Origin: Myxococcales bacterium
GTDB lineage: Bacteria > UBA10199 > 2-02-FULL-44-16 > JAAZCA01
Assembly: GCA_012513515.1 (NCBI GenBank)
Contig: JAAZCA010000030.1
Location: 1 to 38,202 of the forward strand
Direction: 5' to 3'
DNA length: 38,202 nucleotides
Both the position numbers and the translations under genes were made by a program. Positions 5,479 to 21,482 of this stretch are shown here, in pieces (position 1 is the stretch's first letter; the number at the start of each line of letters is the position of its first letter). The notes under the pieces were generated by a model. It was not told the DNA's origin. It saw nothing but the letters and a program-made list of their open reading frames with translations, and made no database searches.

Positions 5479-7935
5479 TTATTTAGAAATCAATTCCAAC
5501 TTGCGAACCAGCGCCCTGCTGAGCAGCTCATCCCCTGCACCATAGAGGGCAGAGATCACATGAGAGGGCCTCAGCACGGCTTCCGAGGACCTGATGGTAA
5601 CCGATATAGCACCATCTCCCAAAACATCAAGCTCGGCAATCTGTTCTTTCAGATCGATCGCTCTTTCCCGGTCCCCTTTCTTTTTTACGTAGAAAACCGG
5701 TTCATTCGAACGCAGCCTGGAGGCGCCCGCCTCCAGTTCTCCGCGCGAAAGCCATGGAAGTAAAACCTCGTAGCGGACAGCCTCGACGCTCTTCTCTATC
5801 GACGCGGCGCCGGGAGGAAGGAGGCTCACCTCCTCGACACGGAATCCTTGCGGCAGCCTCTCATTGAGGAGATTTAAAATATCCTCTTCGAATTCATTCG
5901 ACAAAAGTTCTATGTCAACGAACTCGCACTCGCTCTCCATACCCACCGGCAAGGCGGAACCGACGCTCACCTTTATCCTTGGATGATATCCGGACGAATA
6001 GGCAGCGCGAAGCCCCGAAGCCCGCAGCGCAATCCTCCAGATGTCCGCAGTCTCGATCCCCCCCAAGAAGGCCGCGCCACCGGTTTTGGAATACTTCAAT
6101 CTGAATTTTATGGATTCCGCTTTCTCCACATCCTTCGGGGCATCCTGCAAAAGAGGGTTCTGGTGAAGATCCGCCAGAGGAAGATTCCGAAGTGACGGAT
6201 CGCACAAGCCGCATGCGGAGCAAATGCCGGCCGTGCAATCCTCGGTCTGAAGAAGTTCTCTGGATTTTCTCCTCTCGTCGATCAAAAATTTCCTGCTCGG
6301 ACCGCAGCGCAGAGGATCCCACGGAAAGAGATAGTCCTCGGGGCGTTCGAAAAGATACACGGAGGGATCTATGCCACATTTTTCAAATGCGCTTCGCCAG
6401 ATGTCGAAGCGAAACATCTCATCCCACCCGTCGAACCTCGCCCCCGCCGCCTGCGCGGCCTCGATAACATCGGCCAGCTCCGCTCCACCGCGCGCAAATA
6501 TCCCCTCGAGCCAGCTCATGTTCGCATCATGCCACCTGTAAAAGAGCCCTCTGCCGCGAAGAACCCTCTTCAGATAATCCTGTTTTTCGATCGTCTCCTC
6601 AGCGGATATCTGTTTCTCCCACTGGAACGGGGTGTGCGGTTTCGGTATGAACGTAGATGTCGACACAGTAACCTCAGCGCGGCGATGACGCCTCCTGCCA
6701 ATCTCCAAACAGCGCTTAGCTATCCCGGCTATTCCATCGAGGTCCTCCTGCGTCTCGCCCGGAAGCCCTATCATAAAATAGAGCTTCACCGCATGCCATC
6801 CGTACGAAAATATTTTTTCAACCGAGGCGTATAGGTCCCCATCCGTATTCCCCTTGTTGATTGCGCGGCGCATCCGTTCCGTGCCCGCCTCAGGCGCAAG
6901 GGTGAAACTCCCCGAACGCGCGCTCCCCATGTTTTTCATCATTCCGTCGGTGAGCGCCTCGACGCGCAGGCTCGGTAGCGATGCGTCTATCGGCAGCTCG
7001 CTCTTTTTATGAACAATCGCAAGCGCCTCTTGAAGCGGAGGCCAGTCGCTCACCGAAAGGGAGAGAAAAGAAAAATCCTCGTGTCCGGTATTTTTCACTA
7101 TATCGCTAACGATACCGACGGCCGTTTCGCAACTCCTCTGCCTGACTGGCCTGTATATGTATCCAGCCTGGCAAAACCTACACCCCCTCGCGCAGCCGCG
7201 GGACACCTCGACCGCAGCGCGCATCTGAGTCGCAAAATATGGGACTACAGGATGGCGCGGAAATTTTGCCCGGTTCAAATCGTGAATGAGCGCCCTCCCT
7301 ACGCCGCATTCGGGAATTCCCCTGACAGGGACAAAAACTCCTTCGAGATTCGAAAGTTCCTCCAGAATTTTTTCCCTGCCGCATCTGGATCTCTTTCCGT
7401 TCGCGACTATCCGACAAATTTTTTCCGAAATTTCCTCGCCATCGCCGATGACGATAGCGTCAAAAAACGGCGCCACCGGCATGGGGTTGTAGGTGCAGGG
7501 ACCACCCGCAATAACTATTGGATCGCCATCACTCCTGTGCTTTGCCCTGATAGGAATACCGGAAAGATCGAGGACGGTGAGCGCATTGGAGTAGGTAAGC
7601 TCGTACCCAAGGCTTATTCCTACGATGTCGAACTCCGAAAGCGGCCTTCCGGACTCCAGCGAAAATAGCGACCTGCCGGCAGAGGTGAGGGCCTCTTCCA
7701 TGTCGATCCATGGGGAGAAGGAGCGCTCCGCCAGCCAGTCATCGCTGGAATTTATGATGGAATAGAGTATAGAAAGCCCTATGTGGCTCATCCCAAGTTC
7801 GTAAGTATCGGGAAAAACTAAACAAATTCGCACCGAGGCCGAATCCCAATCCTTGCGGATGGAACCGGGCTCGCCGCCGATATAGCGGTAAGGATTCCTT
7901 ACCGAGGCTATCATCTCCCTTGTCGATTTCTCCAT
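5479..7935 (-). CDS. TIGR03960-type radical SAM protein fused to a TIGR03936/DUF2344 domain
   Basis: An 818-residue fusion. The N-terminal part contains a B12-binding-like region followed by a radical SAM core with the Cys248-x3-Cys252-x2-Cys255 cluster motif (SRGCARGCRFC). A further cysteine-rich block lies near 567-580 (CTAGICSACGLC), which may hold a second iron-sulfur cluster. From about residue 610 the sequence matches the DUF2344 family (FRLKYSKTGGAAFLGGIE). In many bacteria these two halves are separate adjacent genes, often next to RNase E/G and rplU, as here. The reaction is not established; the conserved link to RNase G and ribosomal genes suggests an RNA or ribosome role (inference). 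It opens the minus-strand run and has its own upstream region at 7936-8123, shared with the divergent giant gene. Confidence 0.93.
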   Translation of the reverse strand: MEKSTREMIASVRNPYRYIGGEPGSIRKDWDSASVRICLVFPDTYELGMSHIGLSILYSIINSSDDWLAERSFSPWIDMEEALTSAGRSLFSLESGRPLSEFDIVGISLGYELTYSNALTVLDLSGIPIRAKHRSDGDPIVIAGGPCTYNPMPVAPFFDAIVIGDGEEISEKICRIVANGKRSRCGREKILEELSNLEGVFVPVRGIPECGVGRALIHDLNRAKFPRHPVVPYFATQMRAAVEVSRGCARGCRFCQAGYIYRPVRQRSCETAVGIVSDIVKNTGHEDFSFLSLSVSDWPPLQEALAIVHKKSELPIDASLPSLRVEALTDGMMKNMGSARSGSFTLAPEAGTERMRRAINKGNTDGDLYASVEKIFSYGWHAVKLYFMIGLPGETQEDLDGIAGIAKRCLEIGRRRHRRAEVTVSTSTFIPKPHTPFQWEKQISAEETIEKQDYLKRVLRGRGLFYRWHDANMSWLEGIFARGGAELADVIEAAQAAGARFDGWDEMFRFDIWRSAFEKCGIDPSVYLFERPEDYLFPWDPLRCGPSRKFLIDERRKSRELLQTEDCTAGICSACGLCDPSLRNLPLADLHQNPLLQDAPKDVEKAESIKFRLKYSKTGGAAFLGGIETADIWRIALRASGLRAAYSSGYHPRIKVSVGSALPVGMESECEFVDIELLSNEFEEDILNLLNERLPQGFRVEEVSLLPPGAASIEKSVEAVRYEVLLPWLSRGELEAGASRLRSNEPVFYVKKKGDRERAIDLKEQIAELDVLGDGAISVTIRSSEAVLRPSHVISALYGAGDELLSRALVRKLELISK

Positions 7936-8123
7936 CAGAGGGCGCTTCTAGCAGCATATCCATTGAAAAAGCAAACTATCTCCTCTATACCTCCCCCGCC
8001 AGAGTGGAACCGCCGATACTCAGAAGGCCGGATCTTTTGTAAAACAGTAAAAGACTGAGCAACATAATGATGCCGTATCCGATAAGGCTGGGGACTTAGA
8101 CAAACCGAGAGGAAATAAAGAAA

Positions 8124-11100
8124 ATGACCACTATAAAAGACACCCAGGGGGACCCTCACATTCACACGCAATCACAGCCCTCTCCAACCGATGGAATCGA
8201 TCTGGCGGATGGGCAATCGGTCGCAAATGGCGATCAAAGAGACGAATTTACGACTGAACAAAACCCGTCGAAAGAGCTCGCTGGCATAGGCAGCGGAGGA
8301 GGTCCCAATATCGACGCACACGCGACGGGTCCGTGGGAACTCTGGGAAATAAGGAGGGAGCTCTCCGAGCTCATCAAATCCGCATCTTCGTCAAATTTCC
8401 GCAACCTGGATATGCAGAAAATATTGGTCGAAGCCATAGGACGTTTGCAAAATAATTTCGATCCCCAGGAAAAATCCGCAGGCTCGATTCCGTCCGAAAG
8501 GGATATTGCAACTGCGCTGAGCAGGGCTTTCAACTATCTCTACAGACACATGCCCGAAGCGAGCAGGAGTATTGAAAAAAGCGATATCCAGAGAGCTCAG
8601 GCCGGAAGCTCCAGAGATGGATTTCTCTTCAAGCTCCTCAAAGATTTCGTCAGCTCGAACGCAGCGCAGTTGTCGCTCTTGGGAGCCAAGACACAATCCG
8701 GCGCTTGGTCAAAGAGATCAGGGCCTGTCATGAGTTTCGACGCCACAGTGAAAAGGGTGGTGACAGCCCAAGCAATCCCCCTAGAGATTCAGGCGATGGC
8801 CCGCGATCTGCCTGATTCCGAACCCATGACAGAACTTTTGACAAAAGCAGAAGCCGCCGGAAAAGGGCTCTCCCTCTTCGGCACTGATGAATCTGAAATC
8901 GCCGCGGCTCTCTCGAAAAATCGGGAAAGACTAAGGGCGCTAAAGATCATAGATGAGCTTGAACTCGCACGGAGAAACGCGATTGCAGTTCACACGCGTG
9001 AAACCGTGAACTTCGACGATCCGAGAATAGAGGAGCTCTATAAAAAAGTCGCAGATGATCTTGAAGAGTGGTTCAATAACAACAAGATTACGATGGAGGA
9101 AAGACCCTTTCTTGAAACAGCCCTTCGCGAATATATAGCGATCCGTTTCTCAGAACAGAGTGACGGAAAGACGATGCACCACTTCGATCTCAGCGAGTCG
9201 GCCTTTGAAAAAACGATGGCTCTTATCGAGCACTCGAAAGGGATCGAAAACATCAACGCGATGTATGGCCTCATGGCCAGAGCGCTCAGTAGCCTGGCAA
9301 GGTCGGACTCTTCGAGAGAAATAGAAGTGGAAATGGAGATGACATCTGCGCAAAGGATGGGAGTCACAAGCACAAAATCTGCGGCACCGCGACAGAGACT
9401 CGTATCACCCATTTTTTCATTTCAGAAAATTCTCGGTGATGATCTTTACGCAAAACTCGACAAGTTCTACAGCGACGTGCTTAGCGGATCGGTCCCGTTC
9501 GTCATCGATGAAGATCCCGCTGTTGAGGCATCGCACTTTTACAAATTCATGTTCCACTATGTGAGCAGATGCGCCAACGAGTACGGAGCTGAGAATACTG
9601 CTAAAAAATTAAAGGAGAGAGGTCTAGAGCCAAGAATCACAAAGGCGATTTTTCTGGAGGTCAAAGATTCATACGAACTCTTTACAAACTCGACCCTAGA
9701 ATTGGTCAGACTCTTTTTCAAAGAAGCGATTCCTGAAAAAACTGCGGCAGCCACGATGTCTCTGAAGCCTACTGCACGCGAATACGAAACCTCGGTCAGA
9801 AAGATGAGCTCCTCATCTAGGGGGGGTGACGGCTTTATCAACTGGAAGTACGATTTTAAAATGCGCAAGGCAATGCCCCTGAAAACCTTTCTCGGACAGA
9901 TATCCGGCGTGGGCGAACCGGGCTTCGAAGAGGAATTCAACTCCTACAACCTAGGCATCACCTGGAAGTCGATGATGAACTGGGGAGAGGTACGCGCCAA
10001 CGCCGACGGTAAAACAGAGGAGATAGGCGAGAAGCACTGGGAACGCATGATAGAGAACTGGAAACACATAGCCGAACATTTCGTCAGACAAGAATCGAAT
10101 CCGGAAGGGATGCCGGGTAGCCTTTTGGAGTTCATGAAGGAATATACTCCGAAGGATCGCTCGCAGGAAAGTTGGCTTGAAGACCTGGACAAAAAACGCA
10201 ATTTCGCAGAACTCAAGGCGCTTGCTATTGCCAACAAACCAAAAGGGATAAGCGAGCTTCACTGGATGATGTATGCAGGATGGATGGCATCCATCAACAG
10301 GATAGAAGACCTCACCGTCCAGCCAGAAAACTACGACGCGATGATAGCCGCATACTACTACCTGAACGCTCTGGCAGCAAAGTACGGAGAGAAGATGGAC
10401 TTCATGGAATATCTGGGGTGCATATTCCCGGTCATAGCCAGAATTCTCTTAAGGGCCGATGAAGAACTCATCAAAATGCACGATTCGGGACTGTTTCACA
10501 ATATCCCCTACGGCGCTTGGAGCTACAGACTTTTGGCACAGCAGATCAGGAATGCTGGACTCGAGTCACACACTAAAGTGAGGGGAAGTACATTCGAAGC
10601 GCACTTATCGAAAGAGTACAGGCCGGAGCTTTGGAACATTAGAAACTACGCAACAGGGGAGATGGCGGAGCAGCTCAGTATGAATAGGGAGGAACTAATA
10701 GAGTTCTTCTCCGGTTTTCTGATGTTCGCGCCCGAAATAAACGCCAGAGTGGCGGTCTTCGACGCCGAGGGTGCGCAGATATCTCACAGGGCTCAGGGGG
10801 TGGAGAGCAAATACAAGTTTCATCTTGTAGAATCGGATTGGAAACATGTGACGCAAGGCACCTCCCCCTCGAGCTCCGCCGAAAGATACGTGGACGACAA
10901 AATAAAGTCCGGTCACTACACAGCACGGACGAGCGAAATGCGGACATTCCTCTCAACCGCTGCGCTCCTCATGCCGCAAGGCAAGCTCCTGAGGGCTGAC
11001 GGCAGCGAGCTGGCACTTGACGATGCAAAAAAAGAGTTCGAAAAATTTGCAAAGGAAGAACTACTAAGGTCCCTGATCTTTGCTGAAATCAGCTCCTCGG

Positions 11101-14100
11101 CATCCAAGTATGCTCCGGACGACATAAGGGATGCCAGAAAATTCTACGCCGAAAGCTTTGAAAATTACTCCAGCGCGTTCACCGATGGCACCTCCATACT
11201 CGGAGATATAGTGGTAGAAAATTTTTCGGTGCCCTTTGAGATAACCTACGGAAATGTCGGGCGCACGGACGCAGGGAGGGTGCAACTTTCCATCGGCGCA
11301 CTGGCCGAGCTTGCCTCCAAAGAAAAATGGAGCAGCCAGCATACCCGCAATGTGGCTGAAATCGCAAAGACCGTGGAATATTTGGTCGCAATAGGCGAGA
11401 TGACCCGCGAAGAGGCGTCCGACTGGGATTCCCTCGAAAAAGCGGTTATGGAGAAAATCTCGATTGCGACTGGGGAACAGACCGGCGCGCTTTCGGATTA
11501 CATGAGGCTAGCCAAATCGGAAGAGCCTACAGACGCTGCTGCTTCAAAGCCGAAAAACACCATCCGGGAGACTAAAAAAATGCCCTATGCGGTCGGCGTT
11601 TTAAAATGGCAAAAGCTCTTTGCGGAGCACGTAGCATCGCTCGCGGACATCTCCCGCGATGAAGCCGCCCTAGTTTCGGATGCGCTCATAAAATATCTTT
11701 ATGTCGCAGGAAGTGCAAAAAAACGCTTCTGGCCCAAGACACTCGAAAAAATTGTGGCCGCCTCCGGCATTGCGGACGAGGTCGTCGCTTTAGAAGATAT
11801 TAAATCCTTTCTGAAAAGTATGGGCTTTGAAACGGAGCATTCAATACATTCAGCGGCAGCTTCATCAGGAGATTTGCCGGAGGTGATCGCAGATAGGATA
11901 GCGGATGAGATATTTGAAGATTATAAAGCCCTTTTTCCTCTCAGAAAAAATAGCGCTGGGCGCGAGAGGATTCCGCTAAATCTCGACTTGATAGCCGAAA
12001 TTTCGGGCCTTCACCTGGGAGAACGCGGCCTGCCGAACGCAAACTCCGACGTGAAAAAATTCGAAGCACTCATCATCCCTCGCATCAACAAATACAATGA
12101 GAGCGCTAGCGGATCGCTGCGACATGAAGAGCATCTTCCAAGTGAAGGCATGCTCAATCAAAAATTCACCTCCGCGGCAAAAGACAGGGGCATGGATGGC
12201 AGCGAAAATATAGCCGCCGTTCGCCGTTCCCTTTTTTCGATGGCCGGATCCATACGGCGCGCCAAGCTCCCTGCCGACATGGAAATTGAGGAGGCGCTCC
12301 AAAAAACCGGGCTGATAGCATCGTCAGTTTCGGAGAACACGTCGCTTCTGAAATCGACGATGCAAGGACAGATCGCGTCGCTCAACCTTATCAACGAGGC
12401 GATCGACCATCCCAAATACGGGGTGGCTAAATTCCTCACGGACAACTACGAAGCCACTGGGATAAATCCTTCGGATCTCAAGAAGCTGATAGGACGATAT
12501 GCCAAGTTGAGGCTGTCTGGAAACCTGCCGGCGCAAATCAGACTGCTCGCCTTCGAATCGCTCGACCCGTCCAGTCCGGCGCTCGCGTCGCTCCTGGCAG
12601 ACTTATACGAGAGAATCGCCGCAGAATGGTTTTACTCCGCGCGCTTAGGCTTCTCAGATATAATGGAGATGGCCGACCTCTCGCTGGAGGATATATCAAA
12701 TGGCACGGCACCCCCTCCGGCAGACATCGAAGATATGAAAATCAGGGTGGTGACATTGGCGAAAATCGCCGAGTCATTCGAAGAAATATTGGAGGCGGAA
12801 AAGATTCTGCTCGCAATGGAAGATTTCCTCGGCATCGATACCACGAGGATGCCGATAATCCGGAAAGTTGAAAGCTCATTCTCCGGCGATATATCCGCTG
12901 TACACGCGAGCCTCGATGCAGAACTAAACGACGCCGTCTTGCGCATCAGCGGTTTCTATTCGGAGTCCTTAAGGCTCTACACCGAGGCAGCAGAGCTTGC
13001 CTCCGAACCCGCAGTTATGGAGGAAGAGGCCGCGAAAAATCAGCTGGAGAGAGCGATCTCATCCTCGGCAATACTCACGAAGCAGATCACCGAATTAGAT
13101 GCACTCACCCCTCTGGCGAGTAGAATCTACGAGATAATATCCTTGCGAAATTTCGACGCCGCCATAGCTAGCGCTTTGAAAAAGATCCCCGCCGAAATTC
13201 AGATCGACGAAGATTCGATGCCCGCCAACTCTCATGAGCTGGCGAGGCTCTACATCGGCAGAGCCGCCGATCTTCTGAGATCGGCTGAAACGAAGACACT
13301 CGAAAAGTGGGTAGCTGCGGAACATACACTAGCCGAGATCAGGGCTGAGGCGCGCAGAGTCGAAGTTGCAAAAACAGCCTCGAGGCTCGATTCGTTCAGC
13401 GCCGCGCTTGAAAACAAAACCGGAGAGCTGATCCCTATCCTTACGGAAGGCGTCAGGGCAAAGTTGGAAAAACTCGACGGCATAAAATCGGGATTGATTT
13501 CGGATGAGGCGCCCTCCGAGGAATTTCTCAGGGATGCGCTCCTGAGTTCAGACGCCCTATACGAAGGTGCCACCCACGGCATCGATAAAAGCGGCGCCTT
13601 GGCGGCGGAGATTTCCGACATATTGGAGCAAAGAAACCTCCTCGGACATACCGCAGGACTCTCCGAATCGATCGCAGCTGCTGAAGGCACCCTGCTAACC
13701 CACGGCCCAAGCGATCTACTCGAAGAGGCCCTCAGGCGCTGCAAAGAGGCGTTCGAAAAAGCGGAGGCGGCGCTCTCGCTTTTTGTAGAGGTTAAGAAGG
13801 ATATAACGACGGGGATAGACTCTATAAAGGCCGCCCTGGAAAACTACGAAGACAGGCTTCCGATCGCCCCCCCGTTTAAGCCAAAAACCGCGGAGGATAT
13901 GGAAATATTCGACGCCACCGAAATAGCCGACTTCAGCAGCAAACCCATATCCTCCAGGGCTCACAGGAGTGCAAAGGCAACGCTCGCTGCAATAACGAAT
14001 GCAAAAATCATAAGTTTCAAAGAGGGGAGCATGATCATCACCTCCCAGGAGGCGGAAAAATTCACGAGCTGGAAGAAACACGGGAGACGAACCCCGCTCA

Positions 14101-16946
14101 CGCTGCGCTTGGTGACAGGTGAAGTTAAGGAGATAGAACAAGGGCGATTCGGGATAAGGCTGGCAGATATCAGGGATATCGATCCTGAAAATCCGCACGT
14201 AAAAACGATACGAGCAGCCAAGCTCTTGGCCAACATAAGATCCTCTGAGACAGCATTTGCTGCAGACATAATATCGTCGGGGCAGAACATGCCGATCTCA
14301 TCCCTTTTGAGCGATCTTGCGCAATACGACCCGTCGACGGGAAAGGAAGGGGCGCTCGCCACAATCTCATCGTGGGCGATGAGAAATCTTCACATAATAC
14401 CGAGGGAGATTTACATAAATTACATATCCATCAACAAGAAAAATGCGCCGGAGCCGCTGAGCTACACCGAGGAAATACACGCGGCATGGCGAAAGCTGAA
14501 CGAGCTGGCACACGAAAATCCGGACATGGGGCCCCTCATTTTCTATCAAATCGGCCCGAATGGTGAAGAAATTGAGATATGGAAAAGGCCCGTCAAGATC
14601 GCGGAGGTAACGGAAAGCCTGAAGGAAAACAGCGGCCGAATAAGATCCTACGATATTCAGACGGCCAGGTGGGTTGAACAAAGCCTGTCCGACATTTTAG
14701 GCAACGCAAAGATTCTCAGATTTTCAATAGGGGGATCTTACAGGTCGTCGCCGATAAAAGCCCTCAACCTCAAAACCAACTACAGCATCACGGCCGACCC
14801 CGAGCTGATGAAGCTCGCGCGTCTCATGCTCCTGACCGAAGAGGATGAAGTTCTAAGGAGAGCGAGCAAGATGACCAGCGTCGATTTCCCCAGTTTTATG
14901 AACTGGCTGCTTTTTCCGATATCGATGGCGGCTCACGACGTGACGCCCCCTCTGACTACGAGAGAGGCGCAGGCGATAGCGCTTGAGGCGTACAATATCA
15001 TTCGAGGTTCGGCAAAAAAGATAGACCCGTCGGAGGTAAGGCCGGAGTCGCTGGCAGGATGGCTACAAACAACCCCCTTTTATGACGGAACGGAACAAAG
15101 TCTCACATCCCTGAAGAAAAAGGATGCGCTCGCCACGAGAATTTCAAACCTGATGTACATGCTGTCTATATACTCCGGCAACCCGCCAAAAGCCATCGAG
15201 TTCGACAGCATGATATCGGATGCGGAGTTCGGAAATTTCCTCGAACGAAAGTTTGCCGAGGAGGCGCAGTCCATATACCTCAACATGCATCTGCCAGTCC
15301 TCGTAAGTCCAGATAAAGACCTGTTCAAAAGCAACCCCGAAACCTTGGGGGTCGGCTCAGCGCAGCTATGGAGCATGCTCAGCATATTCGAACCGGCGAT
15401 GAAGGTAAGCCTCCCCGAATCGAATTCGCTTTCAGCGGTGCGCAAAATACTTAGCGGAGCGCCGGCGTGGATAAGAATCCTGATACAGAGGTTCCCTTCG
15501 CTTTCCAGACCGCTCTGCCTCATCGCACTCGTCTATGACCAGATGCCGGAATCATTCAGAGATGGGCTGTCCAAAGTCATGAGGGAGGTCATGACCGTTC
15601 CCAATAGTCCAAACGACGAAGAACGCGCCAAGCAGAGGATCATATCTTTTTATCGCGAACACGCCGCGCCGGGCGCTCACGGCCACCAGGGGATAATCCA
15701 GGCGCTCAATAGAAAAATCCCGGGAGGACACACGCTCGCAAGCTGGTGTTCGGGCAGCCATGATTTGGCGGAAGGATTTAAGGATAGATGGGAGGATTTC
15801 GAACCCGAAAACGTGATCAGGATAGCCTTTTTTGAGCTGACGAAGTTGCGGCCGGCGCTCGCAGCAAGGCTGATTGAAAAGATGGACGCAGAGAAAGACA
15901 AAGACCAATTGTACGCCCCGATCCTATCTTTCATAGAAAAGTATCCAGAAATGCGGAACCCGGTTCTTTCGCTGAGCGTCCTTTACCATAACATGGAAAC
16001 CGAATCGAAGAATGAGACACGCGATTTCCTCATGAACCTGGAATCCTCCAATCCGGAGGAACTCGTGAAGTTTTTACAAAAATTTTCCATTCAGAAGGCA
16101 ATAATAGACGCCTTGAAGGCGGATTCCGGCGTAGAGCGAAACATGAGCACAGCCGTATATCTCACCGGCGAGGAAAAACCATACATCCCGACTGAAATCC
16201 TCCCCCCTGCCATCAGGCTTCGTGCCATAATACCTGGCCTCGCGAAAATGAATCCAGATCAAGGCCATTTTATCAAAATCTTCCCCAAAGATAAAAACAG
16301 CAAAGTCCTCTTAAACCTTATAAAAACAGCTGAGAAATACCCTGAGATGGGATCTGCGGTTGTCTTGATGATTTTAGCGCAGTTCCGCATGGATGACGAG
16401 GCGCGCATAAATTTCCATAGATACTTCGAAAATATGCACAATCCCGGGCCAAAGGAGCTGGTCGATGCCATATTGGATCTACGCCTCGTTACACATCTCG
16501 AAGAAATAGTGAGCTCCTTCGACACAACAGATGATAGGGGGATGCCTCACGCCAATGCGAAGCCGGCAAAGCCAAGGCCCTCGAAAAAGGAAAAGGATGA
16601 CCCGCGCGGGGGAGGCGGATCGTCGGGCGGGACGCCAGCCGGAGGATCCGGGAGAACTTCTCCGCCTCAGACTCCACATCCGACCGCGTCCGCATACGGC
16701 AAATGGGCCGCTCAACGAGCGACGCCGCCGCTTTCACAATCATCGGAGATCGACGCCGGAGCCGCCGCGCTCCTCACATATCGGAGCCAGCAGAGCCAGA
16801 ACCCCGCCCGGATGCTTTCATCGGGTATGCCGAACGCAGGTGTATTTGGGATCCAGCAGATAACAACGCCTTTCATCCACACGCCGGCGACCTCCATCGT
16901 ATCGATGCAGGCCTTTACCGGAATTCGGCCGATGATCTTCAGATGA
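8124..16946 (+). CDS. Giant protein of unknown function (2,940 residues)
   Basis: A single uninterrupted 8.8-kb frame, the largest gene here, with base composition like its neighbours. I recognise no family. There is no signal peptide and no convincing membrane segment, so it is probably cytoplasmic or exported by an unusual route. The first ~60 residues are polar and disordered-looking. Most of the rest (about 60-2800) reads as dense amphipathic helix rich in Ala, Glu, Lys, Leu and Ser. A long heptad-like stretch runs at about 1590-1930, and a possible small beta module (PLTLRLVTGEVKEIEQG) sits near 1990. The C-terminus (2812-2860) is a basic Gly/Ser/Pro-rich linker followed by a Gln/Ser/Thr-rich tail. 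Only about five cysteines are visible in the whole chain. No P-loop, protease, nuclease or glycosyltransferase motif was found. A weak AGAGG lies 11 bp before the ATG. It stands alone: divergent from the radical SAM gene and ending 6 bp from convergent rimO. Confidence 0.9.
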   Translation: MTTIKDTQGDPHIHTQSQPSPTDGIDLADGQSVANGDQRDEFTTEQNPSKELAGIGSGGGPNIDAHATGPWELWEIRRELSELIKSASSSNFRNLDMQKILVEAIGRLQNNFDPQEKSAGSIPSERDIATALSRAFNYLYRHMPEASRSIEKSDIQRAQAGSSRDGFLFKLLKDFVSSNAAQLSLLGAKTQSGAWSKRSGPVMSFDATVKRVVTAQAIPLEIQAMARDLPDSEPMTELLTKAEAAGKGLSLFGTDESEIAAALSKNRERLRALKIIDELELARRNAIAVHTRETVNFDDPRIEELYKKVADDLEEWFNNNKITMEERPFLETALREYIAIRFSEQSDGKTMHHFDLSESAFEKTMALIEHSKGIENINAMYGLMARALSSLARSDSSREIEVEMEMTSAQRMGVTSTKSAAPRQRLVSPIFSFQKILGDDLYAKLDKFYSDVLSGSVPFVIDEDPAVEASHFYKFMFHYVSRCANEYGAENTAKKLKERGLEPRITKAIFLEVKDSYELFTNSTLELVRLFFKEAIPEKTAAATMSLKPTAREYETSVRKMSSSSRGGDGFINWKYDFKMRKAMPLKTFLGQISGVGEPGFEEEFNSYNLGITWKSMMNWGEVRANADGKTEEIGEKHWERMIENWKHIAEHFVRQESNPEGMPGSLLEFMKEYTPKDRSQESWLEDLDKKRNFAELKALAIANKPKGISELHWMMYAGWMASINRIEDLTVQPENYDAMIAAYYYLNALAAKYGEKMDFMEYLGCIFPVIARILLRADEELIKMHDSGLFHNIPYGAWSYRLLAQQIRNAGLESHTKVRGSTFEAHLSKEYRPELWNIRNYATGEMAEQLSMNREELIEFFSGFLMFAPEINARVAVFDAEGAQISHRAQGVESKYKFHLVESDWKHVTQGTSPSSSAERYVDDKIKSGHYTARTSEMRTFLSTAALLMPQGKLLRADGSELALDDAKKEFEKFAKEELLRSLIFAEISSSASKYAPDDIRDARKFYAESFENYSSAFTDGTSILGDIVVENFSVPFEITYGNVGRTDAGRVQLSIGALAELASKEKWSSQHTRNVAEIAKTVEYLVAIGEMTREEASDWDSLEKAVMEKISIATGEQTGALSDYMRLAKSEEPTDAAASKPKNTIRETKKMPYAVGVLKWQKLFAEHVASLADISRDEAALVSDALIKYLYVAGSAKKRFWPKTLEKIVAASGIADEVVALEDIKSFLKSMGFETEHSIHSAAASSGDLPEVIADRIADEIFEDYKALFPLRKNSAGRERIPLNLDLIAEISGLHLGERGLPNANSDVKKFEALIIPRINKYNESASGSLRHEEHLPSEGMLNQKFTSAAKDRGMDGSENIAAVRRSLFSMAGSIRRAKLPADMEIEEALQKTGLIASSVSENTSLLKSTMQGQIASLNLINEAIDHPKYGVAKFLTDNYEATGINPSDLKKLIGRYAKLRLSGNLPAQIRLLAFESLDPSSPALASLLADLYERIAAEWFYSARLGFSDIMEMADLSLEDISNGTAPPPADIEDMKIRVVTLAKIAESFEEILEAEKILLAMEDFLGIDTTRMPIIRKVESSFSGDISAVHASLDAELNDAVLRISGFYSESLRLYTEAAELASEPAVMEEEAAKNQLERAISSSAILTKQITELDALTPLASRIYEIISLRNFDAAIASALKKIPAEIQIDEDSMPANSHELARLYIGRAADLLRSAETKTLEKWVAAEHTLAEIRAEARRVEVAKTASRLDSFSAALENKTGELIPILTEGVRAKLEKLDGIKSGLISDEAPSEEFLRDALLSSDALYEGATHGIDKSGALAAEISDILEQRNLLGHTAGLSESIAAAEGTLLTHGPSDLLEEALRRCKEAFEKAEAALSLFVEVKKDITTGIDSIKAALENYEDRLPIAPPFKPKTAEDMEIFDATEIADFSSKPISSRAHRSAKATLAAITNAKIISFKEGSMIITSQEAEKFTSWKKHGRRTPLTLRLVTGEVKEIEQGRFGIRLADIRDIDPENPHVKTIRAAKLLANIRSSETAFAADIISSGQNMPISSLLSDLAQYDPSTGKEGALATISSWAMRNLHIIPREIYINYISINKKNAPEPLSYTEEIHAAWRKLNELAHENPDMGPLIFYQIGPNGEEIEIWKRPVKIAEVTESLKENSGRIRSYDIQTARWVEQSLSDILGNAKILRFSIGGSYRSSPIKALNLKTNYSITADPELMKLARLMLLTEEDEVLRRASKMTSVDFPSFMNWLLFPISMAAHDVTPPLTTREAQAIALEAYNIIRGSAKKIDPSEVRPESLAGWLQTTPFYDGTEQSLTSLKKKDALATRISNLMYMLSIYSGNPPKAIEFDSMISDAEFGNFLERKFAEEAQSIYLNMHLPVLVSPDKDLFKSNPETLGVGSAQLWSMLSIFEPAMKVSLPESNSLSAVRKILSGAPAWIRILIQRFPSLSRPLCLIALVYDQMPESFRDGLSKVMREVMTVPNSPNDEERAKQRIISFYREHAAPGAHGHQGIIQALNRKIPGGHTLASWCSGSHDLAEGFKDRWEDFEPENVIRIAFFELTKLRPALAARLIEKMDAEKDKDQLYAPILSFIEKYPEMRNPVLSLSVLYHNMETESKNETRDFLMNLESSNPEELVKFLQKFSIQKAIIDALKADSGVERNMSTAVYLTGEEKPYIPTEILPPAIRLRAIIPGLAKMNPDQGHFIKIFPKDKNSKVLLNLIKTAEKYPEMGSAVVLMILAQFRMDDEARINFHRYFENMHNPGPKELVDAILDLRLVTHLEEIVSSFDTTDDRGMPHANAKPAKPRPSKKEKDDPRGGGGSSGGTPAGGSGRTSPPQTPHPTASAYGKWAAQRATPPLSQSSEIDAGAAALLTYRSQQSQNPARMLSSGMPNAGVFGIQQITTPFIHTPATSIVSMQAFTGIRPMIFR

Positions 16947-16952
16947 CCACTG

Positions 16953-18272
16953 TCAGTCAACCACGCTGCCGACTAGGTCGTAATGATGCGCTTCGGTGAT
17001 GTTGACGGTGACAAAACTTCCGGATCTTGCGAAACCTTCGTTGATATAGACGACGCCGTCGAACTCCGGCGCCTGCCCTTCGTGACGCGCCTGAACCAGC
17101 ATCTCGGTCTCCTCTGAAGGACCTTCCACCAAAACATCTACTCGCCTCCCGAGGTAGCGCTGGTTGTTGCTCAGAGAAATTTCTCTCTGCAGTTCCATCG
17201 CCTCCTTCATGCGCTCCTCGACAATCTTGGGATGAACCTTCTCCTTCAATTTCGCGGCAGGCGTACCATCCTCTGGCGAAAAGGTGAAAACTCCGAGATG
17301 CTCGAACCTGATATCGCCCATAAAATCGAGGAGCTCGTCGAACTCCTTCTGAGTTTCTCCCGGAAAGCCGACAATCAGAGATGTCCTTATCGAAACGCCG
17401 GGGACGCGCTCCCTCAGCTTCCTGAGAAGGCCGCGTATTTCGCTCCCATCGCCTTTGCGTTTCATCATCTTGAGTATCCTGTCGTTTATATGCTGAACCG
17501 GAAGGTCGATATAGGAACAGATGTCATTTCTGTCGCGCATCAGCTCTATGACCTCGTCGGAAAATTTGTGCGGATAGGCGTAGAGAATTCTCAGCCATTT
17601 GTCTCCGCCCTTCAGGTCCGATAGGCTGCGCAGAAGCTTCGCAAAATCGGTCCCGATATCCACGCCGTAAGCTGTAGTGTCCTGCGCGATGATGTTTATC
17701 TCTTTTACTCCATCCGAAAGCATCCTCTGCGCCTCGCTCAAAATGGATTCGATCGGGCGAGAGCGAAATTTTCCGCGAAGCTTCGGAATGATACAAAAAG
17801 AACACGGGTGAAGACACCCCTCTGAAATCTTGAGATATGCAACATGCCTGGCGGTCGTACGCAGGCGTTCCGTACGATGATCGTAGATATACCCGGGTCT
17901 CCCCACCTCGACATGCTGTGTTCCGTCCCAGGACTTTATGAGTTCGACTATCTTGTGAAAGTCCCCCGTGCCTATGAAAATATCCACCTCGGGAAGGAGT
18001 TCGGCGAGCTCGCCCCTGTAGCGCTGCGGCAGACATCCAGCGACCACTAGCAATTTACAGGAGCCCTTTTTCTTGAACTCCGCCATCTCGAGTATGGTGT
18101 CTATAGCCTCCCTCTTCGCATCCTCCACAAATGCGCAGGTGTTGACGACTATGGCCTCGGCCTCTTTCGGCTCATCGATCAGGTCATGCCCCCCCTTCAC
18201 AAGGGCCGCGAGCATGATTTCCGAATCGACCAGATTTTTGGGGCATCCAAGAGAGATAAAATGAAGTTTCAT
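16953..18272 (-). CDS. rimO: Ribosomal protein uS12 methylthiotransferase RimO
   Basis: A 439-residue member of the MiaB/RimO methylthiotransferases. The UPF0004 domain carries cluster ligands Cys10 (ISLGCPKN), Cys46 and Cys80. The radical SAM motif Cys153-x3-Cys157-x2-Cys160 (EGCLHPCSFC) and a C-terminal TRAM domain complete it. The ISLGCPKNLVDSE start and EGCLHPC motif are characteristic of RimO rather than MiaB. It adds a methylthio group to an aspartate of uS12 in the ribosome. An AGGA site lies 6 bp before the ATG. It sits 7 bp after the propeller lipoprotein gene and probably shares its transcript. Its 3' end is 6 bp from the end of the convergent giant gene. Confidence 0.97.
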   Translation of the reverse strand: MKLHFISLGCPKNLVDSEIMLAALVKGGHDLIDEPKEAEAIVVNTCAFVEDAKREAIDTILEMAEFKKKGSCKLLVVAGCLPQRYRGELAELLPEVDIFIGTGDFHKIVELIKSWDGTQHVEVGRPGYIYDHRTERLRTTARHVAYLKISEGCLHPCSFCIIPKLRGKFRSRPIESILSEAQRMLSDGVKEINIIAQDTTAYGVDIGTDFAKLLRSLSDLKGGDKWLRILYAYPHKFSDEVIELMRDRNDICSYIDLPVQHINDRILKMMKRKGDGSEIRGLLRKLRERVPGVSIRTSLIVGFPGETQKEFDELLDFMGDIRFEHLGVFTFSPEDGTPAAKLKEKVHPKIVEERMKEAMELQREISLSNNQRYLGRRVDVLVEGPSEETEMLVQARHEGQAPEFDGVVYINEGFARSGSFVTVNITEAHHYDLVGSVVD

Positions 18273-18279
18273 GGCATTC

Positions 18280-19590
18280 CTATGGTATGAATATCAGCCC
18301 GCTCGGCGTAAAACCACCAACCCCTATCCCAGACTGGACAGAGGTCATCTTCCCTTCACTGTCGTAGGTCATTACGGATACGGTGTTCGACCCTTCGTTG
18401 GCTACGAATAAAACTCTGTTCGCAGTCGATATCGCCAACGCCCTAGCCCTCTCCCCACCGCTGTTCATCGAAAAGCCTGTATCCGAAACATTTCCCCCTT
18501 CATCATAAGTGAATGATCTTATCGTTCCGCCAGCGACGTTCTGATTCGCAACGAATATTATCTTTCTGGAGGTGTCCAGAATTATATCGCGCGGCCTGGT
18601 TCCATGGCTGTTTATTACTCTCTCCCTCCTTAAGGCGCCATCATCGCCGTATGAAAAAACGGTGAGGTCGTTGGAATCGAAATTCACGCAAAAAAGCAGG
18701 TCATATTCCCTGTCGACGGCCAGAGCCACGGGCTGCGATACACCATCCCCAAAAGGAGAGCTGGCGACTTTCTCCAGCTCGCCGCCCGAACTGTAGGTAA
18801 AGGCGGCGATGTCGTTCGTTGTGTTGTTGGCAAGAAAAAGAAATTTTCCGCCATCGTCTATAGCCACGTCGTACGGATTAAACCCATCCACTCCATCGAC
18901 CTCAACGAATGAAAGGCCGCCGGTTTCATCGTCGGAAATAAATGATGATACGGTGGAAGACCCAAAGTTGGATGTGAAAAGGATCCTGTTTGTCGCGTCG
19001 AACGCGAGCTCGTTCACACCTGTCGCCTCCGCGCTCACCGGATCGCGCAGCGCAACCAGAGATCCGTCCTCAAATGAATAGGTAAACTCCGATATCGTCG
19101 CGCTGTGAGCCGCATAGAGCGTCTGCGTCCTTGAATCGTGCGCAAGCCCTATCGGGAATCCACCCCCCGCAGAGGTTAGGGAAAGCTCCGATATCTTCGA
19201 TGTCGAGCTGTCGAAGTCAAAAGCTACTATCTCGTTTGAACCCTTGTTCGCAACATACAGCATGCTTCGATATGTGTAACCGCTGCTTTTCGTGGTCTCG
19301 ACGCCATCGGGATCGGCAAGGGTTATCTTCACAGAGCCCGTCTGATCGGCAGGCGGAGCTATAACCTTTATCCTCGTGGATTCGATGCTTACGACAACCG
19401 CATTTTCATCGCCGAAGGTAACGGTCGAATCTGCTAGAAATCCGCGTCCGACGAGCAGGACCTCGTTTCCTCCGCTCGTGCTTCCGGCTGACGGGGTGAC
19501 GGTGTTGATGTGAATGTCATCGGTGACAGTTCCGCATGAAGCGATCATCATGCAGATCGACGCCACAACAGAAACTGCAGCTTTTTTCAT
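18280..19590 (-). CDS. Lipoprotein with IPT/TIG domain and seven-bladed lactonase-type beta-propeller
   Basis: The ATG at 19590 is chosen although the frame is open to 19779. It gives a lipoprotein signal peptide (MKK, a hydrophobic run, lipobox IASC with Cys19) and a GGGGAT ribosome-binding site. The mature 418 residues contain a TIG/IPT immunoglobulin-like domain at about 30-108 (TPSAGSTSGGNEVLLVGRGF). Seven repeats follow of the form LFVANxGSNxVxxFxYxxxG, each one propeller blade, filling about 110-436. Such YncE/lactonase-like propellers usually serve as binding scaffolds in the periplasm or at the surface, and an enzymatic role is not evident. It sits just upstream of rimO and diverges from ychF, sharing a 130-bp intergenic region. 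Confidence 0.88.
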   Translation of the reverse strand: MKKAAVSVVASICMMIASCGTVTDDIHINTVTPSAGSTSGGNEVLLVGRGFLADSTVTFGDENAVVVSIESTRIKVIAPPADQTGSVKITLADPDGVETTKSSGYTYRSMLYVANKGSNEIVAFDFDSSTSKISELSLTSAGGGFPIGLAHDSRTQTLYAAHSATISEFTYSFEDGSLVALRDPVSAEATGVNELAFDATNRILFTSNFGSSTVSSFISDDETGGLSFVEVDGVDGFNPYDVAIDDGGKFLFLANNTTNDIAAFTYSSGGELEKVASSPFGDGVSQPVALAVDREYDLLFCVNFDSNDLTVFSYGDDGALRRERVINSHGTRPRDIILDTSRKIIFVANQNVAGGTIRSFTYDEGGNVSDTGFSMNSGGERARALAISTANRVLFVANEGSNTVSVMTYDSEGKMTSVQSGIGVGGFTPSGLIFIP

Positions 19591-19720
19591 GTCGATATCC
19601 CCGATCTGGACCTTCGGGTCCGGTATCCATCGATGCCTGCGGAGATTACCCCGAAAAACCGACAAAATAAAATAAATTTCGTCGTTGAAATGAAATTCCG
19701 GCTCTGGCAGCCTCGCACTC

Positions 19721-20821
19721 ATGGGACTCAACTGCGGAATAGTGGGGCTGCCTAACGTCGGGAAATCGACTATTTTCAACGCGATGACCGACGCGAGCGT
19801 CCCCGCCGAAAACTACCCTTTCTGCACGAAGGACCAAAATACCGGCATGGCATTCCTACCCGATTCAAGGCTTCAAAGGATCGCCGAAATATTCAAACCT
19901 GAAAGGGTCATCCCGACGCAGGTTGAATTCGTCGATATCGCCGGATTGGTAGAGGGGGCGCACAAGGGGGAAGGGTTAGGAAATAAATTCCTTGGCCACA
20001 TCAGGAACGTCGATGCGATCATCCACGTCGTAAGGTGCTTCGACGCCCCAAATGTCGTCCACAGCTATTCATCCGTCGATCCCCTGCGCGACATAGAGGT
20101 CGTGGAGACGGAATTGAAGCTCGCCGATCTTGAAACGGTATCCAGGCGGCACGAGAAAATCGCGCACGCGGCAAAAACAGGAAGCGCGGAGGCAAAAAAA
20201 GAGCTTCCCGCACTGGAGGCCGTAAAGGCGACACTCGAAGAGGGAGAGGCTGCCTCGTCCGCAAATCTCTCAAACGAAGATCGTCAGATGATATCCGGCC
20301 TGAACCTTATCACCACAAAGCCGGTGATATATCTTCTCAACGTGAATGAATCAGACGTCAAGAACCCCTCTCAAATCGTGCAGAGAGTTCTCGACCACTG
20401 CGCTTCACGCAGGATTCCCGCGGTTGAGGTGTGCGGATCGATCGAGGGGGAACTATCCGATCTTGATGAAGATGCCAGAAAGGAATTTCTCGCCGATCTC
20501 GGCCTTGCCGAGGGAGGGCTGGGAAGGCTCGTACACGCAGCATACGCGCTGCTGGACCTCATCACATTCTTCACCAAGGATGGTCCGGAGGTGCGCGCGT
20601 GGACGGTCGTGCGCGGCACGAAGGCCCCACAGGCCGCGGGCAAAATCCATTCGGATTTCGAAAAGGGATTTATCAGGGCCGAGGTTTATGGTTTTGACGA
20701 ACTCAACGCCGCAGGATCTGAACAGAAGTTAAAGGAGTCAGGGCTTGTCAGAATAGAAGGACGGGACTATGTTGTAAAAGACGGAGATGTGATACATTTT
20801 CGGTTCAACATCTCCAGCTAG
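19721..20821 (+). CDS. ychF: Redox-regulated ATPase/GTPase YchF (Obg-related)
   Basis: A 366-residue YchF with P-loop GLPNVGKS at 9-16 and the DIAGLVEGAHKGEGLGNKFL switch region. The G4 position reads NVNE instead of NKxD, the change that makes YchF prefer ATP. A C-terminal TGS domain ends in GDVIHFRFN. The family associates with ribosomes and modulates stress responses. The standard MGxxCGIVGLPNVGKS N-terminus fixes the start at 19721, though no strong ribosome-binding site is visible. The stop codon runs directly into a palindromic element at 20821-20845. Confidence 0.97.
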   Translation: MGLNCGIVGLPNVGKSTIFNAMTDASVPAENYPFCTKDQNTGMAFLPDSRLQRIAEIFKPERVIPTQVEFVDIAGLVEGAHKGEGLGNKFLGHIRNVDAIIHVVRCFDAPNVVHSYSSVDPLRDIEVVETELKLADLETVSRRHEKIAHAAKTGSAEAKKELPALEAVKATLEEGEAASSANLSNEDRQMISGLNLITTKPVIYLLNVNESDVKNPSQIVQRVLDHCASRRIPAVEVCGSIEGELSDLDEDARKEFLADLGLAEGGLGRLVHAAYALLDLITFFTKDGPEVRAWTVVRGTKAPQAAGKIHSDFEKGFIRAEVYGFDELNAAGSEQKLKESGLVRIEGRDYVVKDGDVIHFRFNISS

Positions 20822-20864: not shown

Positions 20865-21482
20865 ATGAAAAAAATTATAGGGATAGCGTTTTTCGGTTCA
20901 GCATGGGGGTTCATCGAGGCGACTGCAGGAGGGGCCATGCACTTCGCCAACGTGCCGTTCACCGGAACGATTATGGCATCGTTGGGATTCGCTATACTCT
21001 TCGCTGCATCGAAAAGTTCTCTCAAGTCAGGCGACCTGTTCGCGGTAAGCCTTCTCGCAGCATCATTCAAATTTTTGGACGCATGGCTATTCTCGCTCCC
21101 GATAATGGACAGGCAGATTTTAAATCCCGCAACTGCAATCGCCTGCCAGGGGCTGGCGGCAGCCGCACTCATGAAATTTTCGGAGGGAGGAAAAAATCCG
21201 GCGAGGTTTTTCGCCTCTCTGGCATCGATGGCTGCCTTGTCGATGATAGGCTTTAACCTCATTTCATATGTCGGATATGGATGGGAGACCAATCACACGA
21301 TGAATCCGCTCAACTCTATCCTCATTCAATTTCCAGCCACCTCGATACTGTCCGCTGCAATTTGCACAGCTTATGCCGCCGCGGCGCTTCGCGTAAAAAA
21401 CGGATTAGGGCTCGCCTGGCAGGCAGCCTCAGCCATAGCACTTGCCACATCCGCGGTAACGATCAACCTGCTGATGCACTGA
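20865..21482 (+). CDS. Polytopic inner-membrane protein of unknown function
   Basis: A 205-residue, strongly hydrophobic protein with six or seven likely membrane segments, at roughly 4-25, 33-50, 57-76, 86-103, 111-136, 147-170 and 180-203. It has small-residue-rich helices and a conserved-looking FGSAWGFIEATAGGAMHF start. The size and helix count resemble the substrate-binding components of ECF-type transporters, but I see no family signature, so that is only a shape comparison. AAGGAG lies 8 bp before the ATG. The next gene, a small P-loop NTPase, starts 16 bp after its stop, so the two probably form a unit. Confidence 0.8.
   Translation: MKKIIGIAFFGSAWGFIEATAGGAMHFANVPFTGTIMASLGFAILFAASKSSLKSGDLFAVSLLAASFKFLDAWLFSLPIMDRQILNPATAIACQGLAAAALMKFSEGGKNPARFFASLASMAALSMIGFNLISYVGYGWETNHTMNPLNSILIQFPATSILSAAICTAYAAAALRVKNGLGLAWQAASAIALATSAVTINLLMH

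What the first reader, a model, noticed from the sequence alone, without database searches (positions are those of the whole stretch)
8124..16946. A 2,940-residue, cysteine-poor, mostly helical cytoplasmic-looking protein of no recognised family
A single intact 8.8-kb gene with native composition and no signal peptide, membrane span or known motif is rare. It has a disordered N-tail, a very long helical body, a heptad-rich stretch at about 1590-1930, a small possible beta module near 1990 and a Gly/Ser/Pro-rich C-tail. It is transcribed alone beside housekeeping genes, so it looks like a resident, lineage-specific protein. It could be a scaffold, a contractile or injected effector, or a cell-shape protein; the sequence does not decide.
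Basis: partly seen in the sequence, partly recalled or inferred. Interest (0 to 1): 0.8.

Follow-up and report, generated by a model that had tools for sequence, protein, structure and literature searches.

The report
Giant modular coiled-coil protein, unknown function
The 2,940-residue protein is real and belongs to a previously unnamed family of giant proteins found only in one group of uncultured bacteria, in which a fast-changing rod of nearly fixed length joins a head of apparently new fold to a module that also occurs with other heads.

Summary
The ORF at 8124-16946 (+) is real: 2,940 aa, intact, native codon usage, the largest ORF of its 1.79-Mb genome, with no paralogue there and no Pfam, NCBIfam, PHROGs, PADLOC or PDB match.

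It is not an orphan. Homologues of about 2,000-3,800 aa occur in 10 of 46 genomes of its class and nowhere else in a motif scan of 84,980 species. Three relatives in its family keep parts of the same locus, and one has three tandem copies.

Family comparison gives an architecture: disordered N-tail; N-block; a conserved core (690-1140), modelled in a relative at pLDDT 79, with no structural match in PDB or viral libraries; a coiled-coil spacer (about 1545-1935) that is almost free in sequence but nearly fixed in length; a conserved module (1945-2115); variable helical repeats; and a G/P/S-rich tail with an uncharged tip. The spacer and module also occur in two 1.3-kb-aa proteins with a different head, which in other proteins carries a nuclease-like motif.

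Best reading: a chassis that holds a head and a C-terminal binding platform at a set distance. The client is unknown. A contractile- or T4SS-injected effector is disfavoured, because the genome lacks those machines; other export is open.

The parts
8107..8112 (+). ribosome-binding-like GAGAGG 11 nt before the ATG
   Evidence: read from the sequence printed; consensus only
8124..16946 (+). giant gene, 2,940 aa, including the stop codon
8124..8333 (+). disordered-looking N-tail (residues 1-70), start MTTIKD; an Ile at position 4 recurs in the family
   Evidence: 8 of 12 members vs 10% background; some start sites were chosen by me
8601..9743 (+). N-block, residues 160-540, colinear in seven members
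   Evidence: leave-one-out HMMs
10191..11543 (+). conserved core, residues 690-1140, 9 aligned members; motif [hydrophobic]Dxx[DE][YF][LM]xx[IV][FY]P at 10396-10444
   Evidence: A1; relative's model pLDDT 78.8, pTM 0.79, no PDB/viral fold match
11991..12623 (+). M1 and anchor blocks, residues 1290-1500
12756..13928 (+). coiled-coil spacer, residues about 1545-1935: least conserved in sequence, nearly constant in length, heptad periodicity
13956..14468 (+). conserved module, residues 1945-2115 (invariant W, R, G, E), also found in two otherwise different proteins
   Evidence: A4
15441..16493 (+). about three diverged 130-150-aa repeats (residues 2448-2590, 2598-2725, 2729-2790); more copies in relatives
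   Evidence: window HMM self-scan
16551..16943 (+). G/S/P-rich C-tail, residues 2810-2940, with an uncharged hydrophobic tip
5479..7935 (-). neighbour: TIGR03960/TIGR03936 radical SAM protein, divergent; adjacent in G002 and G003 too
16953..18272 (-). neighbour: RimO, convergent, 6 bases after the giant gene; linked also in G001 and G002

Best explanation
A giant modular spacer protein. A head (N-block plus a core of apparently new fold) and a C-terminal platform (conserved module, variable helical repeats, low-complexity tail) are held apart by a coiled-coil rod of about 390 residues, at most about 58 nm if it were one continuous parallel coil and less if segmented or folded back. The rod is selected for length, not sequence. 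It works as a tether or scaffold that positions what the head binds relative to what the module, repeats and tail bind. Shown: the gene, the family, the colinear blocks, the heptad rod of near-constant length, the module shared with other heads. Inferred: that it oligomerises, that head and platform bind clients, and that the job is spacing. Client and cell compartment are unknown.
For: Leave-one-out HMMs place the blocks in the same order in the members; anchor-to-module distance is 511-540 residues in 8 of 10 members (G003 counted with a weak anchor, E 2e-3; exceptions G007 469, G010 388), although this stretch has the lowest conservation of the protein. Family-averaged hydrophobic periodicity there peaks at 102-104 degrees, 2.7 times shuffled, against 1.6 times in the core; it is A/E/L/R-rich and poor in aromatics. 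[quoted passage not shown] Rod plus module recur with another head in two proteins (full-profile E 1e-14 and 3e-16). Open frames are kept in 10 genomes, at 29% identity in the giant (G000-G002) where RNase G keeps 78% and RimO 68%. No signal peptide or membrane span seen.
Against: Two members break the length rule. The rod contains prolines (3.2%), so it is probably segmented, not one continuous coil. No partner gene is conserved outside the family of the window. The core model is of a relative (G010); the window's own segment modelled poorly (pLDDT 60.8). No experiment, localisation or oligomer data. Fast evolution, patchy presence and head exchange also fit an antagonistic or exported protein.
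Confidence: 0.5

Rival explanations
1. An exported or delivered polymorphic effector: rod, module and tails are the constant chassis, the heads are exchanged payloads, used against other cells.
For: The same rod+module carries a different head in G001 and G042; that head occurs in two further long proteins (G002, G045) with a GDRL[IV]E[IV]K nuclease-like motif. Fast evolution, tandem copies in G001, patchy presence (10 of 46). All 9 complete C-termini lack D/E in the last 12 residues (background 24%, about 2e-6), and the G002 giant and G002 nuclease-like tails resemble each other (p 0.012). MxxI start in 8 of 12.
Against: No T6SS, phage/eCIS sheath or VirB4 in this genome; only one FHIPEP, and G003 has the giant without any FHIPEP match. 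No signal peptide seen. No immunity-like partner. The nuclease motif is not kept in the two proteins that share the rod and module. Pfam and PDB negative for that head. Type I secretion was not tested.
Confidence: 0.25
2. A cytoskeletal or cell-shape protein that assembles into filaments or a cortical scaffold.
For: Long helical rod, repeats, no signal peptide, one copy per genome in most members; the sister protein's rod weakly resembles EzrA (E 1e-4, below Pfam's cut-off), a rod-type resemblance.
Against: Patchy presence: absent from nearly complete genomes of the same order or class (G005, G006, G017), unlike a core cell-shape protein; no link to cell-division or wall genes.
Confidence: 0.15
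3. A giant DNA-binding protein with Cro/C1-like helix-turn-helix units in the core.
For: The 795-870 segment reads like an XRE helix-turn-helix (LAxxI..STxxxH..RPxxETL..A); hhalign score 19.4 vs at most 10.4 in 20 column shuffles; Pfam HTH_26 E 0.094 in one of nine members.
Against: hhalign probability only 19%; an HMM of 30 XRE domains of the class finds nothing; consensus segments give no Pfam hit; the pLDDT-79 model has no HTH protein among the listed hits.
Confidence: 0.04
4. A domesticated phage tail tape-measure protein.
For: Long, helical, length-constrained.
Against: No PHROGs hit, no tblastn match in 50,697 phage records, no phage genes identified at the locus, no membrane segments, no viral structural match.
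Confidence: 0.02

Closest known systems
Coiled-coil molecular spacers (golgins such as Giantin, Ndc80; reviewed in PMC5082667)
   Different: No sequence relation; bacterial, with a core of no known fold, a conserved module and variable repeats; clients unknown.
Polymorphic toxin / modular effector systems
   Same: Exchange of heads on a shared chassis, fast evolution, patchy presence, a nuclease-like motif in related proteins.
   Different: Payload-like head is N-terminal or central; no immunity partner, no known trafficking domain, no matching secretion machine found here.
EzrA (PF06160) and other spectrin-like bacterial rods
   Same: Weak rod-level resemblance of a sister protein (E 1e-4).
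   Different: No membrane anchor, no division-gene link; hit below Pfam's cut-off and limited to the coiled coil.
Giant extracellular proteins of bacteria (e.g. Giant1-5 of Apilactobacillus kunkeei, PMC12863079)
   Same: Several-thousand-residue, lineage-restricted, tandem copies possible.
   Different: Those are described as extracellular surface proteins; no signal peptide was seen here.

Membership tests
Coiled-coil molecular spacer | Heptad (3.5-residue) hydrophobic periodicity in the rod | tested here: met
   Peak at 102-104 degrees, 2.7 times shuffled, over ten members
Coiled-coil molecular spacer | Length conserved while sequence diverges | tested here: met
   511-540 residues in 8 of 10 members, lowest conservation of the protein; G007 and G010 are exceptions
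Coiled-coil molecular spacer | Oligomeric rod that separates two binding ends | not testable with these tools
   Needs biochemistry or imaging
Any Pfam/NCBIfam/PHROGs/PADLOC family | Match over the curated cut-off or a significant E-value | tested here: not met
   best for the window protein LON_substr_bdg E 0.032, 14.6 vs 28.7 bits
Known fold of the core | Significant Foldseek match of a confident model | tested here: not met
   Model pLDDT 78.8, pTM 0.79; best PDB E 0.41, best viral E 0.91; cellular AlphaFold DB not available
Cro/C1 (XRE) HTH protein | Profile match to HTH_3-type domains | tested here: not met
   hhalign suggestive only
T6SS, eCIS or T4SS effector | Genome encodes the delivery machine | tested here: not met
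   VipB 0 of 46, Phage_sheath_1 and VirB4 absent from G000
Type I secreted protein | Linked ABC exporter and functional C-terminal signal | not tested
   No exporter among the identified immediate neighbours; uncharged tip noted but export not testable here
Polymorphic toxin | Exchangeable payload on a constant part, with toxic payload and immunity gene | tested here: inconclusive
   Head exchange shown; payload activity and immunity gene not shown
PD-(D/E)XK nuclease (alternative head of sister proteins only) | D...ExK motif in the expected fold | tested here: inconclusive
   Motif by eye in G002 and G045, not kept in G001 and G042; Pfam and PDB profile negative
Phage tape-measure protein | Phage tail context or PHROGs match | tested here: not met

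The most novel reading that the evidence does not exclude
A modular giant-protein system confined to one uncultured lineage: a constant chassis (disordered tags, coiled-coil ruler, conserved module, repeats, uncharged tip) on which unrelated heads, one of a fold not seen before and one nuclease-like, are exchanged to act at a set distance, inside the cell or on a neighbour.
Probability: 0.25. Interest if true: 0.8.

Novelty: new variant of a known kind. Interest (0 to 1): 0.55.

Why it matters
Many giant bacterial proteins are surface proteins or synthases (own knowledge); this one has no visible signal peptide, no recognised enzyme domain and no known relative, yet its frame is kept across a deep lineage while its sequence races. 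It offers a testable case of a protein selected for length rather than sequence, a core domain with no PDB match, and a head-exchange system known so far only from metagenome-assembled genomes.

Tried and rejected
Cro/C1 HTH in the core: attractive by eye, rejected as unproven after HMM, profile-profile and structure tests. Lon substrate-binding hit (E 0.032), single-chain PDB hits and dynein/14-3-3-type hits: chance level. Conserved sequence motif in the C-tail: not significant between members; only composition and the acid-free tip recur. Partner gene by neighbourhood: none outside the window's family. Link to flagella: FHIPEP is in 44 of 46 genomes, so uninformative. DNA-level repeats inside the gene: none of note. 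First protein-pattern scan of genome contigs found nothing because members are too diverged; a hand-made motif worked. Window segment 590-1165 as structure query gave a poor model. Plasmid and phage searches negative. Core tree: f5 is one clade, the window's family is not resolved as one.

Full report
Observation. The frame 8124-16946 (+) is a single intact ATG ORF of 2,940 aa. Its genome (G000, 1,786,840 bases, 42 contigs, 99.3% complete) was read as stretches; the giant is the largest of 1,578 ORFs and has no paralogue. Codon usage is ordinary (rank 291 of 770) and the chance of so long an open frame is about 1e-60. No library recognises it: Pfam, NCBIfam, PHROGs, PADLOC, PDB sequences; relatives and family consensus pieces do no better.

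Relatives. Whole-genome searches found homologues in 10 of the 46 genomes held for the class, which for the held set equals the phylum: all four members of the window's family (G000-G003), one genome each of f2, f3 and f4, and three of six in f5. Complete lengths are 1,977 (G004), 2,289 and 2,850 (G001), 2,681 (G003), 2,940 (G000), 3,092 (G002) and 3,784 aa (G010); the rest run off contig ends. No internal stop was seen in any. A degenerate DNA motif built from the core matched 5 contigs among 84,980 species, all already members, deposited as 'Deltaproteobacteria bacterium' or 'Bdellovibrio sp.' MAGs. In the window's family the gene stays at one locus: rSAM-giant-RimO in G002, the rSAM side in G003, the RimO side in G001, where three tandem members stand (2,289, 2,850 and 1,104 aa). 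The 1,104-aa copy lacks the core. Elsewhere the neighbourhood differs. Giant identity is 29% for G000-G002 where RNase G keeps 78%, YchF 70%, RimO 68%, so the gene evolves fast but is maintained.

Architecture. Leave-one-out HMMs recover colinear blocks in the members. The core (690-1140) is best conserved. A 271-aa piece of it from relative G010, aligned with five others including the window, models at pLDDT 78.8 and pTM 0.79, yet Foldseek finds nothing in PDB (best E 0.41) or among viral models (best E 0.91). That makes a new fold likely, with the limits that the alignment has six rows and cellular AlphaFold models were not searchable. The window's own longer segment modelled poorly (pLDDT 60.8; no match).

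Spacer. Between anchor (about 1466) and module (about 1987) lie 511-540 residues in 8 of 10 members, with G007 (469) and G010 (388) apart; G003 is included with a weak anchor. This is the least conserved part. Its hydrophobic periodicity peaks at 102-104 degrees, the 3.5-residue heptad, at 2.7 times shuffled, against 1.6 times in the core. Sequence-free, length-bound coiled coils are described as molecular spacers (PMC5082667).

Module and head exchange. The module (1945-2115) has invariant W, R, G and E. A class-wide profile search found it in seven genomes that carry the core (weakly in G026; not in G009, G010 or the truncated G036), plus two other proteins: 1,256 aa in G042 and 1,349 aa in G001. 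These share rod and module (E 1e-14 and 3e-16) but carry another N-terminal head, which recurs in two further long proteins, G002 (1,575 aa) and G045 (1,319 aa). In those two it contains GDRL[IV]E[IV]K, the look of a PD-(D/E)XK nuclease; in the two rod+module proteins the motif positions are not kept. Pfam and PDB profiles do not confirm a nuclease, so this is a lead by eye.

Ends. C-terminal repeats of 130-150 aa vary in number (three in the window protein, more in G010 and G001b) and help explain length differences. All nine complete C-termini examined of giants and sisters lack D/E in the last 12 residues (background 24%), and most have a G/P/S/T/A-rich linker before. G010, G042 and G045 were not in that set: their ends lack the linker. 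Ile at position 4 in 8 of 12 (background 10%) suggests a short N-terminal tag, with the caveat that three start sites were chosen by me. These may be sorting or assembly tags; both counts are post hoc.

Mechanism. I commit to a modular spacer: head and C-terminal platform held at a set distance by a coiled-coil rod (0.5). The main rival is a delivered polymorphic effector (0.25). For this genome the usual injection machines are absent: no T6SS sheath, phage/eCIS sheath or VirB4, and one FHIPEP that is presumably flagellar; type I secretion was not tested. Absence from nearly complete genomes of the same order or class (G005, G006, G017) argues against an essential cell-shape role.

Novelty. 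The family and probably the core fold are new; the working principle, a coiled-coil spacer, is known. Hence 'new variant of a known kind'.

Noticed in passing
L213:8099-11869 (-), L214:7517-11566 (+): Two 1.3-kb-aa sister proteins (G042, G001) share the giant's rod and module but have another head.
   Followed up: yes
L225:2983-7710 (-), L226:1562-5521 (-): Long proteins in G002 and G045 with a GDRL[IV]E[IV]K nuclease-like head unknown to Pfam; the G002 one has a G/P-rich tail like that of the G002 giant.
   Followed up: partly
L214:5128-7632 (-): 834-aa protein beside the G001 sister protein, PF17914 (HopA1 family) at 22.5 bits vs cut-off 22.7.
   Followed up: no
L036:14916-16133 (-): A DUF4116 protein (PF13475, E 1.5e-6) stands beyond the tandem giants of G001.
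   Followed up: no
window 18280-19779 (-): TIG plus lactonase-type beta-propeller protein, linked to RimO in G000, G001 and G002.
   Followed up: no
window 20865-21482 (+): 205-aa protein after YchF without any Pfam or NCBIfam match, conserved in G002 (52%).
   Followed up: no
L199, L200 and G005:C4, G030:C11: Phage- or eCIS-type sheath genes occur in f3 and f19 genomes, but not in the window's family.
   Followed up: no
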